A stretch of 64,000 nt of DNA from Solibacillus sp. FSL R5-0449. Its GTDB lineage: Bacteria > Bacillota > Bacilli > Bacillales_A > Planococcaceae. The stretch covers positions 658,001 to 722,000 of the forward strand of contig NZ_CP150239.1 in assembly GCF_037975215.1 (NCBI RefSeq), given 5' to 3'. Numbering within the stretch: the first letter of the stretch is position 1; each line of letters starts with the position of its first letter. A program made the translations under genes and the position numbers. The notes under the pieces were generated by a model that ran no database searches, was not told the origin of the DNA, and saw only the letters and a program-made list of their open reading frames with translations. Below, one piece after another: positions 6,314-46,579 of this stretch.

Positions 6314-6527
6314 GTAGAATCTTCTACGTCAATAGTAGAAAGATTACTAGTGAATGTGGAAGTTTCAGTTCGAAATGTAGAACAAGTCATGCCTAAAGTA
6401 GAAAGAGCTACTTTATTAGAAGTTCTATAAATGAAAGTAGAAACTTTTCAGGCCAAAGTAGAACGCTTGAGATATAAATTGGAAACTATTGGCGCTAATG
6501 TAGAACAATTACGGTTCAAAAGTAGAA
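6314..6527 (+). repeat. 21-bp-phased GTAGAA array, copy 1
   Basis: Cores start at 6314, 6335, 6356 (GTGGAA), 6377, 6398, 6416 (TTAGAA), 6437, 6458, 6479 (TTGGAA), 6500 and 6522. Steps are 21 bp except one of 18 and one of 22. Spacers of about 15 bases are unlike each other. The array lies between a terminator and the promoter region of the amidase gene. No credible reading frame covers it. Confidence 0.85.
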
Positions 6528-8703: not shown

Positions 8704-8875
8704 TTCTAATATGTTCCTCAGAAGTTCTAATAACCTGAAAAATGTTCTAATAAAGGTGCGAAGTTCTAATATAATAGACGTTTCTTCTAATATGTCATCC
8801 GGATGTTCTAATATCATAATCAGAAGTTCAAATATCCGATCTCAATCTTCTAATATCGATCCCAACTCTTCTAAT
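8704..8875 (-). repeat. 21-bp-phased TTCTAAT array (reverse orientation), copy 2
   Basis: TTCTAA cores start at 8704, 8725, 8745, 8764, 8785, 8806, 8827 (TTCAAA), 8848 and 8869, with steps of 19-21 and mostly 21. Read on the minus strand the core is TTAGAA, the variant that also occurs inside the GTAGAA arrays. It fills the space between the convergent amidase and glucosaminidase terminators. The open frame it allows (Ser-Ser-Asn repeats) has no ribosome site and is taken as a by-product. Confidence 0.8.
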
Positions 8876-16240: not shown

Positions 16241-16641
16241 GTAGAATGCTTAGACAAGAATGTAGAACCTAGCATCAGGAAAGTAGAATGTTTTACGAGT
16301 AAAGTAGAAAGTTTCACTCGAAAAGTAGAACGGGTTGCGAGTAATAGCCGAGTTGTCGCGGAAAGTAGAATATTGTGGCACGAAAGTAGAATAATGTGGC
16401 GCCAAAGTAGAATACTTACGTAATTAAGTAGAACTTCGCACCAAAAAAGTAGAACGATTTACCAGTAAAGTAGAAAGTTTTACTCGAAAAGTAGAATGGG
16501 TTGCGAGTAATAGCCGAGTTGTCGCTGAAAGTAGAATAATTTGGCACGAAAGTAGAATAGTTACGTAATAAAGTAGAACTTCGCACCAAAAAAGTAGAAC
16601 GATTTACCAGTAAAGTAGAAAGTTTCACTCGAAATGTAGAA
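16241..16641 (+). repeat. 21-bp-phased GTAGAA array, copy 3 (largest)
   Basis: Eighteen GTAGAA cores start at 16241, 16262, 16283, 16304, 16325, 16365, 16386, 16407, 16428, 16449, 16470, 16491, 16531, 16552, 16573, 16594, 16615 and 16636. Every step is 21 bp except two of 40 where a core has decayed. Most cores are preceded by AAA. Segments are duplicated at offsets of 166 bp (16304 onward) and 145 bp (16428 onward), showing growth by unequal exchange. It lies between convergent genes. Confidence 0.92.
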
Positions 16642-16793
16642 CACGTTGTGAGTATTCGCCAATTTCTCAGAGAAAATAGAGTGCATCAGAACTCCGCTCC
16701 AAAAAAGTTGAACTCTACCCCGAAAAATGAGAAAAATATACTTTTTAGGTAACTCATCACCTCCTTAAAGTAGAAATCACATAAGAAAATAAC

Positions 16794-28098: not shown

Positions 28099-28208
28099 TT
28101 CCACATTAGTTGATGTATTTTCCACATTAGCCTCGAAACATTCTACATAACCTCTGAAATTTCCACATTATTAGCGCTTCGTTCTATATATACAAAGAAA
28201 TGTTCTAC
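28099..28208 (-). repeat. 21-bp-phased TTCTAC/TTCCAC array (reverse orientation), copy 4
   Basis: Cores start at 28099 (TTCCAC), 28120 (TTCCAC), 28141 (TTCTAC), 28161 (TTCCAC), 28182 (TTCTAT) and 28203 (TTCTAC). Steps are 21 except one of 20. On the minus strand these read GTGGAA and GTAGAA. It lies between convergent genes. Confidence 0.8.
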
Positions 28209-33081: not shown

Positions 33082-33192
33082 GTAGAAAGTTATGTGGGGA
33101 AAGTGGAACGGACTGAACTATAAGTAGAAAGTTTTGAAGCAAAAGTAGAAACTGTTCATGGAAAAGTAGAATAAATGGTCGAAAAAGAAGAA
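33082..33192 (+). repeat. 21-bp-phased GTAGAA array, copy 5
   Basis: Cores start at 33082, 33103 (GTGGAA), 33124, 33145, 33166 and 33187 (GAAGAA), every step exactly 21 bp. It lies between the convergent tagO and LCP genes. Confidence 0.85.
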
Positions 33193-39062: not shown

Positions 39063-39407
39063 TTAGAAGTTTGTGGGTGGAAAGTAGAACACGGGCCGGG
39101 GAAAGTAGAAAATTTCCGGTAGAAAGTGGAATGTGAGCAGGGATAAGTAGAAGCGGCTGTCGTTATTAGAAGTTAGTGGGCGGAAAGTAGAAAGTTTTTC
39201 TCAGAAAGTAGACAGTTTTGAGTCGAAAGTAGAATGTGAACGGAGAGAAGTAGAAACGGTTGTCGGTATTAGAAGTTTTTGGCTGGAATGTGGAAACTTC
39301 TTCACGGAAAGTAGACAGTTTTAAGGTGAAAGTGGAACGTAAAGGGGAGAAAGTAGAACTTTTAGAGTGAAAAGTAGAAAGTTTTTTAAGTAATGTGGAA
39401 AGTAGAA
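39063..39407 (+). repeat. 21-bp-phased GTAGAA array, copy 6, with 103-bp higher-order period
   Basis: Seventeen cores start at 39063 (TTAGAA), 39084, 39105, 39126, 39147, 39166 (TTAGAA), 39187, 39208, 39229, 39250, 39269 (TTAGAA), 39290, 39311, 39332, 39353, 39374 and 39395, with a further GTAGAA at 39402. Steps are 21 bp, with 19 before each TTAGAA. The three TTAGAA cores are exactly 103 bp apart, giving a five-core block (four 21-bp steps plus one of 19) repeated three times with diverged spacers. The array fills the space between the fakB terminator and comFA. Confidence 0.92.
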
Positions 39408-42068: not shown

Positions 42069-42229
42069 AGTAAAATGAACATAATAATATACTACATAAG
42101 TCCAGTTTTTTGTACTGAAGCATAAACAATTGGTAAAAGCAGTCGAAATAAAATGTAGACGAAGCTTTTAACTTTATTAGCTGAAAGAAGTTTAAGCCCC
42201 GCGCGTAAGTCGAAGGTTCGGTTATTTGA

Positions 42230-42270
42230 AGTTAACCTAAAATCGCCGCGTCGTGCGACAACGGTTAACT
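42230..42270 (+). promoter_or_regulatory. Structured leader element upstream of flgM
   Basis: AGTTAACC and GGTTAACT form an 8-bp outer stem enclosing an inner GTCG/CGAC hairpin, 67 bases before the flgM start. The sequence between the yvyF terminator and flgM is otherwise without a gene. It could be an RNA switch, a protein operator with dyad symmetry, or chance. Confidence 0.4.
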
Positions 42271-42336
42271 GATTCACATCGTGTGGACGTAAAGCCGAAT
42301 CGAGGCAAAAATGATTTTAAGAGGAGGTCTATAAAT

Positions 42337-45003: not shown

Positions 45004-45891
45004 ATGCGTGTTACACAATCAATGTTGTCCAGCAATATGCTTCGTAACCTAAATACAAGCTATGGCAAAATGAGTAAATTGCAAGAGCAAATAAATTCTG
45101 GAAAAGTTATAAATCGTCCATCTGATGACCCGGTAATAGCGGTAAAAGGAATGGGTTATCGTGTAGATATAGATAAAATTGAGCAATTTCAACGTAATAT
45201 GAATACAGCGCATAATTGGCTGGATTCATCAGATGAAGCATTAGATCAGGTGGGGAATGCTTTACACCGTGTACAGGAACTAGTAACACAGGCTGCAAAT
45301 GATTCGAATACTGCAGATGAACGTCAAAAAATCCAAGTGGAAATCGAACAAATTCAACAGCAAATGCGTGATTTAGCGAATACAAAAATTGGTGAGAATT
45401 ATATTTTTTCAGGGACTAATACAAGTTCTCCCCTCTTTCCGGACTCTACATCAAATGTTATGTCTGCTGGAACGGGTTTAAATAAATCAGTAGAAATCAA
45501 TGTATTCGATGGAATTACAATGCAAGTCAATACACCGGGAGTAGGTTTATTCAAAGGTATAGATGATATGATGCAAAGTGTATCAGATGCATTAAATAAC
45601 CCAGCCTCAACAGGTCAAGAAATTGGCGATTTATTGGGGGATATTCAAGGACAAACAAATGTCGTTCTTGAACAACGGGCTATCATCGGTGCAAGACAAA
45701 ACCGAGCGGAACTGATGGAAAATCGATTGTCAATAAGTGAAGTAAATATCACAAAACAATTATCCCAAAATGAAGATACAGATTATGCAAAAGCTATTAC
45801 AGAAATGACAACTGCCGAATCAATTCACCAAGCATCACTATCAGTAGGGGCAAAGATTATTCAGCAAACACTAGTAGATTTCATCCGTTAG
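45004..45891 (+). CDS. flgL: Flagellar hook-associated protein 3, FlgL
   Basis: 295 residues, flagellin-like ends: MLRNLNTSYGKMSKLQEQI at the start and TTAESIHQASLSVGAKIIQ at the end. FlgL joins FlgK to the filament. The last six codons with the stop form half of a 14-bp inverted repeat and are copied in the 75-bp tandem array that follows. ATG follows AGGAAGAAGG. Confidence 0.95.
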   Translation: MRVTQSMLSSNMLRNLNTSYGKMSKLQEQINSGKVINRPSDDPVIAVKGMGYRVDIDKIEQFQRNMNTAHNWLDSSDEALDQVGNALHRVQELVTQAANDSNTADERQKIQVEIEQIQQQMRDLANTKIGENYIFSGTNTSSPLFPDSTSNVMSAGTGLNKSVEINVFDGITMQVNTPGVGLFKGIDDMMQSVSDALNNPASTGQEIGDLLGDIQGQTNVVLEQRAIIGARQNRAELMENRLSISEVNITKQLSQNEDTDYAKAITEMTTAESIHQASLSVGAKIIQQTLVDFIR

Positions 45892-46566
45892 ATGAAATCT
45901 ACTAGTGTTCTGCACCGAAAGCGAAGCGACAGGTGCAAACGATTTTAAAAAGATTTCATCCGTTAGATGAAATCTACTAGTGTTCTGCACCGAAAGCGAA
46001 GCGACAGGTGCAAACGATTTTAAAAAGACTTCATCCGTTAGATGAAATCTACTAGTGTTCTGCACCGAAAGCGAAGCGACAGGTGCAAACGATTTTAAAA
46101 AGATTTCATCCGTTAGATGAAATCTACTAGTGTTCTGCACCGAAAGCGAAGCGACAGGTGCAAACGATTTTAAAAAGATTTCATCCGTTAGATGAAATCT
46201 ACTAGTGTTCTGCACCGAAAGCGAAGCGACAGGTGCAAACGATTTTAAAAAGATTTCATCCGTTAGATGAAATCTACTAGTGTTCTGCACCGAAAGCGAA
46301 GCGACAGGTGCAAACGATTTTAAAAAGATTTCATCCGTTAGATGAAATCTACTAGTGTTCTGCACCGAAAGCGAAGCGACAGGTGCAAACGATTTTAAAA
46401 AGATTTCATCCGTTAGATGAAATCTACTAGTGTTCTGCACCGAAAGCGAAGCGACAGGTGCAAACGGATTAAAAAAGATTTCATCCGTTAGATGAAATCT
46501 ACTAGTGTTCTGCACCGAAAGCGAAGCGACAGGTGCAAACGATTTTAAAAAGATTTCATCCGTTAG
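45876..46566. repeat. Nine 75-bp tandem repeats after flgL, plus a partial tenth
   Basis: The unit starts AGATTTCATCCGTTAG and repeats at 45876, 45951, 46026, 46101, 46176, 46251, 46326, 46401 and 46476, with a 16-bp partial unit at 46551. Copies are almost identical; copy three has one change (AGACTT) and the junction before copy nine differs by a few bases. Each unit holds an AGATTTCAT/ATGAAATCT hairpin and a GCACC/GGTGC hairpin. The first unit includes the flgL stop codon. Since 75 is divisible by three, a long minus-strand frame arises, not taken as a gene. Confidence 0.95.
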
Positions 46567-46579
46567 TGAATATACTATA

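What the first reader, a model, noticed from the sequence alone, without database searches (positions are those of the whole stretch)
16241..16680. A family of 21-bp-phased GTAGAA arrays in six intergenic regions
About 67 copies of a six-base core (GTAGAA, less often GTGGAA or TTAGAA), usually after AAA, recur at steps of 21 bp at 6314-6527, 8704-8875, 16241-16641, 28099-28208, 33082-33192 and 39063-39407. In the largest array 15 of 17 steps are exactly 21 and the other two are 40, where one core has decayed. Spacers of 15 bases are mostly unlike, so the phase is held more strictly than the sequence. Twenty-one bases equal two helical turns, which puts every core and its A-tract on one DNA face. 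That suggests binding of a multimeric protein, intrinsic bending, or a nucleoid or chromosome-organising site. I know of no named element with this form.
Basis: seen in the sequence. Interest (0 to 1): 0.88.

Follow-up and report, generated by a model that had tools for sequence, protein, structure and literature searches.

The report
Two-turn DNA arrays with changing words
Behind many genes of these soil bacteria lie rows of a short DNA word repeated every two turns of the double helix; related species keep the spacing and often the place but use a different word, which points to an undescribed kind of protein-binding platform on the chromosome.

Summary
In the window's noncoding DNA, 54 positions start a 6-mer repeated exactly at lag 21; lags 19, 20, 22 and 23 give none, and shuffles average 0.017. 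The genome (nearest named relatives: Solibacillus) has at least 37 such loci.

Two families exist. AAAGTAGAA arrays consist of modules of n x 21 - 2 bp. ATATTAGAA elements share one plan, 21,21,21,81,21,21,42,21,19,20,20, with an unconserved insert of fixed length.

In 18 arrays shared with a sister species, core positions differ by 2.8-3.4% and spacers by 23%; 164 of 182 steps are unchanged. Core and step therefore look selected.

A terminator-like hairpin precedes 28 of 44 sampled arrays. Arrays mostly point with the upstream gene, and 1 of 44 lies between divergent genes. RNA folding is no better than shuffled.

Other Planococcaceae and some Bacillaceae have arrays with the same 20-21 bp step but other words, repeatedly before ComFA (9 of 50 stretches, 8 words).

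Best reading: head-to-tail binding sites on one DNA face for an unidentified protein, probably a boundary behind terminators. The binder was not found and the function is inferred. Nine literature searches found no description.

The parts
6314..6527 (+). GTAGAA-family array between an NlpC/P60-SLH gene and an amidase-SLH gene, same direction as both
8704..8875 (-). TTAGAA-family array (steps 21,42,21,21,19,20,21 read on the minus strand), between convergent genes
16241..16641 (+). largest GTAGAA-family array, 18 cores, steps 21 (15) and 40 (2), module period 166, between convergent genes (SLH-NAGPA and NERD)
16325..16370 (+). module boundary (40-bp step) with TAATAGCC-like word; repeated at 16491-16536
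28099..28208 (-). GTAGAA/GTGGAA-family array, partly decayed, between convergent genes; same intergene carries 21-bp arrays with other words in Ureibacillus and Lysinibacillus loci
33082..33192 (+). GTAGAA-family array between a tagO-like gene and a LytR-cpsA-psr gene (convergent); same intergene carries arrays with other words in three Lysinibacillus loci
39063..39407 (+). GTAGAA-family array of 103-bp modules, each opening with a TTAGAA unit and closing with a 19-bp step, between DegV and a ComFA-like helicase

Best explanation
Each array is a stretch of double-stranded DNA that carries 4 to about 25 head-to-tail binding sites (core of 6-9 bp) for a sequence-specific protein. A step of 21 bp (20 in some species) puts every site on the same face of the helix, so that bound subunits touch their neighbours and make a filament or a wrapped complex of about 100-570 bp. 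The arrays sit just behind transcription terminators and mostly point the way the upstream gene is read. I think it most likely that they act as local boundaries at gene ends: a polar roadblock that stops transcription escaping the terminator, and/or an insulator of supercoiling, between neighbours. The protein's recognised word drifts between species and the arrays follow. SHOWN: arrays, period, selection on core and step, place and orientation, change of word at a kept place. INFERRED: that a protein binds, that it multimerises, that the function is a boundary.
For: Core differs at 51/1807 (2.8%) or 63/1857 (3.4%) positions against 772/3325 or 800/3447 (23%) in spacers in 18 orthologous arrays; even with spacer change halved to allow for choosing cores by motif, p = 3e-31 and 5e-27; 164/182 steps equal. 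Unconserved insert kept at 81-82 bp at 18 of 24 loci, the rest 71-72 (3), 92-93 (2), 79 (1). Step 20 or 21 for unrelated words, none at control lags 16, 17, 24, 25 in 46 loci; none outside 20, 21, 40-42 among lags 12-49 in 50 stretches. A/T content recurs at the second harmonic (10-10.5 bp) more than at the first and third in 12 of 18 word families (rough p 0.005). Terminator-like hairpin before 28 of 44 arrays against 43 of 880 shuffles. Of 44 sampled arrays 22 are tandem and co-directed, 5 tandem and opposed, 16 convergent, 1 divergent, against 31 tandem, 12 convergent and 10 divergent among 53 intergenes of 200 bp or more. In the 16 convergent cases orientation does not follow replication (9 with, 7 against, taking the terminus at mid-chromosome). 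RNA folds no better than shuffles.
Against: No binding protein was identified and no binding or transcription data exist. Five tandem arrays face the wrong way for a polar block, and 16 of 44 show no terminator-like hairpin by my simple rule. One array lies between DnaK and the next gene of the same direction, where a strict block might harm. Arrays come and go: A33082 is absent from two named Solibacillus species and 5 of 16 genomes of the genus show none before ComFA. Many Planococcaceae stretches have none (1 of 16 random stretches).
Confidence: 0.42

Rival explanations
1. Chromosome-organising sites: the bound protein nucleates a nucleoid complex (parS- or matS-like or centromere-like), and gene ends are only the tolerated places.
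For: At least 37 dispersed loci with 4 or more exact cores, no preference for one gene function, same-face phasing; ParR-type centromeres are also iteron arrays (recalled).
Against: Only a weak relation to ori/ter (26 against 11 loci by half); orientation in convergent intergenes is 9 with and 7 against replication; no partner gene found.
Confidence: 0.22
2. Interspersed repeat family without host function (STAR-like or MITE-like): the core is kept because the element's own spreading factor needs it.
For: Many dispersed copies, shared plan across loci, fixed leader and tail in genera g4 and g12, turnover between species.
Against: Orthologous copies stay in place in the sister species while spacers diverge by 23%, yet cores and steps are held, which means selection on resident copies; no coding autonomous copy was seen in the stretches read.
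Confidence: 0.2
3. RNA element: the array works in a read-through transcript, bound by a multimeric RNA-binding protein.
For: Arrays are oriented with the upstream gene in 22 of 27 tandem cases.
Against: They lie behind terminators; folds are no better than shuffles (z -0.62, -1.52, -0.14, -0.94); an unconserved 60-nt insert of fixed length with one-turn variants is a helical, not a single-strand, constraint; no Rfam match at the arrays.
Confidence: 0.08
4. Intrinsically curved DNA, with no specific binder.
For: 9 of 22 arrays more curved than shuffles in a wedge model; A/T wave near 10.5 bp in 12 of 18 word families.
Against: None of the 6 TTAGAA-type arrays tested is curved beyond shuffles, though they have the best conserved plan; the exact core letters are selected. 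Model values recalled from memory.
Confidence: 0.05
5. By-product of a Type IIL (MmeI-like) restriction enzyme that reads 6-7 asymmetric bases and cuts about 20 bp away.
For: Matching geometry (recalled).
Against: The MmeI methylase family PF20473 is absent from this genome and from 11 others of the 16 searched in the genus, including array-rich G154, G155 and G156.
Confidence: 0.01

Closest known systems
STAR elements of Staphylococcus (PMC3532100; parts 1 and 2 of 5 of the text read)
   Same: Dispersed intergenic direct repeats with a start signature, dozens of loci per genome, unknown function, stable places within a species, uneven distribution among species.
   Different: STAR: a 14-bp GC-rich motif with 40-44 bp spacers; one word; no shared place between species. 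Here: core of 6-9 bp, step of 20-21 bp, many words, shared places between genera.
Plasmid iterons (recalled)
   Same: Direct repeats about two turns apart, bound on one DNA face by a protein.
   Different: No replication gene next to the arrays examined; dozens of chromosomal copies; spacers vary freely.
ParR-type plasmid centromeres such as pSK41 parC (recalled)
   Same: Two sets of about 20-bp direct repeats separated by a gap, wrapped into one complex.
   Different: No parM/parR beside the arrays examined; many copies per chromosome.
REP/BIME elements (recalled)
   Same: Between terminators and gene ends, avoiding promoters.
   Different: REPs are palindromic stem-loops; these are asymmetric direct repeats with no significant fold.

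Membership tests
STAR elements | TNTGTTGNGGCCC motif | tested here: not met
   Cores are KTRGAA in this genome; definition from PMC3532100.
STAR elements | 40-44 bp spacers between motifs | tested here: not met
   Dominant step 21 (147 of TTAGAA-type and 101 of GTAGAA-type nearest distances).
Plasmid iterons | Direct repeats about two helical turns apart | tested here: met
Plasmid iterons | Adjacent replication-initiator gene | tested here: not met
   Pfam of 22 neighbouring proteins shows none; not all neighbours were examined.
ParMRC centromere | Adjacent parM/parR genes | tested here: not met
   same 22 neighbours
REP/BIME | Palindromic units folding into stem-loops | tested here: not met
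   fold z -0.14 to -1.52 for 4 arrays
CRISPR | Long identical repeats with unrelated spacers beside cas genes | tested here: not met
   Conserved part is about 9 bp, spacers are homologous between sister species; cas genes were not searched for.
Known RNA family | Rfam match | tested here: not met
   Only Bacillaceae-1 at 42221-42287 in the window.
Protein-binding array | A protein that binds the core | not testable with these tools
   needs pull-down or DAP-seq

The most novel reading that the evidence does not exclude
A chromosome-wide system of same-face protein arrays in Planococcaceae and Bacillaceae whose architecture (20-21 bp step, gene-end addresses) is kept while the recognition word has been rewritten many times, with the binding protein and dozens of arrays per genome changing together.
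Probability: 0.4. Interest if true: 0.93.

Novelty: categorically new. Interest (0 to 1): 0.85.

Why it matters
It would be a new class of bacterial chromosomal site with a clear physical rule, in bacteria that are easy to grow. It also offers a natural experiment on how a DNA-binding protein and a whole set of its sites can change specificity together: more than a dozen words with one geometry, and one array that seems caught between two words. If the arrays are boundaries, they address how bacteria with many closely packed genes keep neighbours apart.

Tried and rejected
RNA structure: folds of four arrays are not better than shuffles; the G-rich start and C-rich end of some elements suggested a closing stem, but convergent genes give the same pattern and the folds did not support it. 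Protein-coding repeat: steps of 19, 20 and 40 break the frame, and four of the six window arrays have no stop-free frame over their length; some short arrays elsewhere have open frames, so coding is not excluded for each of them, and L205, L209 and L227 are left out of the DegV/ComFA count. MmeI-like enzyme: rejected. Curvature alone: not general. Plasmid origin: a distant search of the array in PLSDB gave no match.

Results that weaken or qualify: the family pattern search rang in 59 of 261 genomes, but some of those are identical tandem repeats that look coding (G040, G044, G051, G057); the reversed control rang in 17 of 261 genomes, strongest in G135 and G136 (15+14 and 11+29), probably another word or coding repeats, not followed. 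The first relative scan used a looser word length at lag 21 than at other lags; I rely, which treat the compared lags alike. Random 20-kb stretches from other genera: 1 of 16 has a lag-21 array, so density is high only in some species. Recurrence at the same intergenes near tagO: outside the genus, 8 of the 13 arrays of Planococcaceae loci fall in the three intergenes that carry window arrays (by coordinates), against 3 of 12 intergenes of 150 bp or more in that part of the window (my count); the species are not independent and those intergenes are long. For the core/spacer test 21 sister stretches were matched; three (L174, L177, L179) were dropped because their counterparts were not among my fetched stretches, and two (L175, L176) were re-windowed. 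The stretches were mostly chosen because they hold arrays (six 20-kb stretches and the first 6 kb were not); together about 349 kb of 3.58 Mb. The ORF caller is simple and replication arms assume a terminus opposite dnaA.

Literature: nine searches of the open library; only PMC3532100 was opened (two of five parts); the others were seen as listings with abstract openings. Subscription papers are not covered.

Full report
WHAT WAS CLAIMED AND WHETHER IT IS THERE. The six arrays are real. A scan that names no word (any 6-mer exact at three places, lags 7-79) rings at lag 21 (54 positions), 42 (24), 63 (3), 50 (2) and 75 (500, one unrelated tandem repeat) and nowhere else; shuffled noncoding DNA gives 0.017 at lag 21. 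The window is part of a one-contig, 3.58-Mb genome. Its tagO-like protein is 97% identical to those of Solibacillus merdavium and S. faecavium, so it is a Solibacillus relative. In the whole genome, three cores KTRGAA at steps of 21 occur 170 times (114 and 56 by strand) against 0 for the pattern read backwards; four cores occur 88 times at 37 distinct loci.

ANATOMY. There are two families. GTAGAA units read AAAGT(A/G)GAA plus 12 variable bases, T-rich at +8 to +10; TTAGAA units read (A/T)TATTAGAA plus 12. GTAGAA arrays are chains of modules of 103, 124 or 166 bp, i.e. n x 21 - 2, because each module has one 19-bp step, often at a TTATTAGCC-like word. The TTAGAA family has a fixed plan. Of 29 chains in my own-genome stretches, 26 contain the 19-bp step followed by 20, 21 or 40, and 24 contain one long step. 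The full plan is 21,21,21,81,21,21,42,21,19,20,20. In the seven loci laid out the sequence inside the 81 step shows no shared letters to the eye, yet its length is 81-82 at 18 of the 24 loci, 71-72 at three, 92-93 at two and 79 at one. Length kept in units of about one turn, without kept sequence, is what a loop or wrap of double-stranded DNA would need.

SELECTION. The sister genome G163 lists arrays whose sequences match most of those in G000, in synteny (compared by eye). For 18 pairs that could be aligned, core positions differ at 2.8% (cores defined in G000) or 3.4% (defined in G163) and spacers at 23.2% in both; with spacer change halved to correct for choosing intact cores, the odds ratios are 0.22 and 0.27 (p 3e-31 and 5e-27). 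Core differences are most frequent at columns 0, 2 and 5 (82 of 114 differences), which also vary within the genome. Of 182 steps 164 are identical; 7 of the 18 changed steps differ by one base and most of the rest by whole units or modules. A tandem duplicate of a whole TTAGAA element inside L088 shows the same contrast by eye.

PLACE. Of 44 sampled arrays, 16 lie between convergent genes, 22 between tandem genes in the same direction, 5 in tandem but opposed and 1 between divergent genes with doubtful ORFs; 53 intergenes of 200 bp or more in 184 kb of the same genome are 31 tandem, 12 convergent and 10 divergent. In 28 of 44 a terminator-like hairpin with a T run lies within 130 nt before the array on the same strand, ending 14-91 nt before the first core; shuffled upstream DNA gives 43 of 880. 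Neighbouring genes are of many kinds: wall enzymes, a sugar kinase, DnaK, permeases, a peptidase. With dnaA at position 1, 26 loci lie in the first half of the chromosome and 11 in the second.

OTHER SPECIES, OTHER WORDS. Genera of the family show 21-bp arrays with other units: GTGGAATAAA (g11), CCAAGTTGGAA with a fixed leader and tail and mostly 4-5 units (g12), TCGGTAGAATAAA with its own leader and tail (g4). In 46 relatives' loci around tagO, 21 noncoding arrays were found at lags 20 or 21 and none at lags 16, 17, 24 or 25. Words include AATCGCCAC, TTAGCGGCG, AATACTCGCGG and GCTGATAG (Lysinibacillus), ATTCCGG and GACCGATA (Robertmurraya), GCGAATAAA (Cytobacillus, step 20) and CGCAAATAAA (Metasolibacillus, step 20). 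The same places recur: arrays with other words lie in the intergenes of window arrays 28099 (L035, L049, L051), 33082 (L038, L040, L043) and 39063 (L044, L051).

THE DEGV/COMFA INTERGENE. Window array 39063 lies between DegV and a ComFA-like helicase. Among 16 genomes of the genus GTAGAA arrays are seen there in six (G000, G152, G154, G155, G156, G163), CTAGCCA in G160, ATAGACA in G157, 41-bp lags with other words in G150, G151 and G162 (not followed), and none in five at this sensitivity. In 50 stretches upstream of ComFA, 12 ring, only at lags 20, 21 and 40-42 among 12-49. Nine of the 12 are directly before ComFA, with DegV's end seen upstream in eight, and carry eight words. One (L210) holds ATCGCTGATAAA units followed by ATCGCCGGTAAA units, as if caught in transition. 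In Robertmurraya and Cytobacillus, another family, arrays also lie between DegV and a following gene whose start I take to be ComFA (that gene was not put through Pfam).

HOW IT PROBABLY WORKS. Cores and steps are kept while spacers drift, steps are two turns, the long gap is quantised near one turn, and an A/T wave of about 10.5 bp is shared by 12 of 18 word families. This points to proteins bound side by side on one face, possibly wrapped. Intrinsic curvature is not shared by all arrays and RNA folding is unsupported. The place behind terminators, the orientation with the upstream gene and the near absence from divergent promoters suggest a boundary at gene ends; this last step is inference. 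Orientation in convergent pairs does not follow replication (9 with, 7 against), which speaks against a replication-polar site.

NOVELTY. It works somewhat like plasmid iterons and resembles STAR elements as a genomic object, but fails defining features of each. Nine searches of the open library found no description; two parts of one paper (PMC3532100) were read. I call it categorically new because I know of no named element that combines a conserved two-turn step, selected cores and a word that changes between species at kept places. A cautious reader may prefer to call it a new variant of interspersed intergenic repeats.

Noticed in passing
window 45876-46577: A 75-bp tandem repeat, 9.4 copies, 98% alike, whose unit contains an inverted repeat; unrelated to the 21-bp arrays.
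   Followed up: no
window 42221-42287: Bacillaceae-1 RNA, the only Rfam match of the window.
   Followed up: no
G135 and G136 (genus g14): The reversed control pattern (AAGRTK four times at 21 bp) rings 29 and 40 times, probably one more word family.
   Followed up: no
L145, L146, L147 (G150, G162, G151): Repeats at lag 41 with words CGCACG, CGAGCA, TCGCAC in stretches around ComFA.
   Followed up: no
L205 1-449 and L209 95-330: Long 21/42-bp repeats more than 1 kb upstream of ComFA in genus g18; coding status unresolved.
   Followed up: partly
L089 2759-3285: A 520-bp GTAGAA array directly behind dnaK, before the next gene in the same direction.
   Followed up: no
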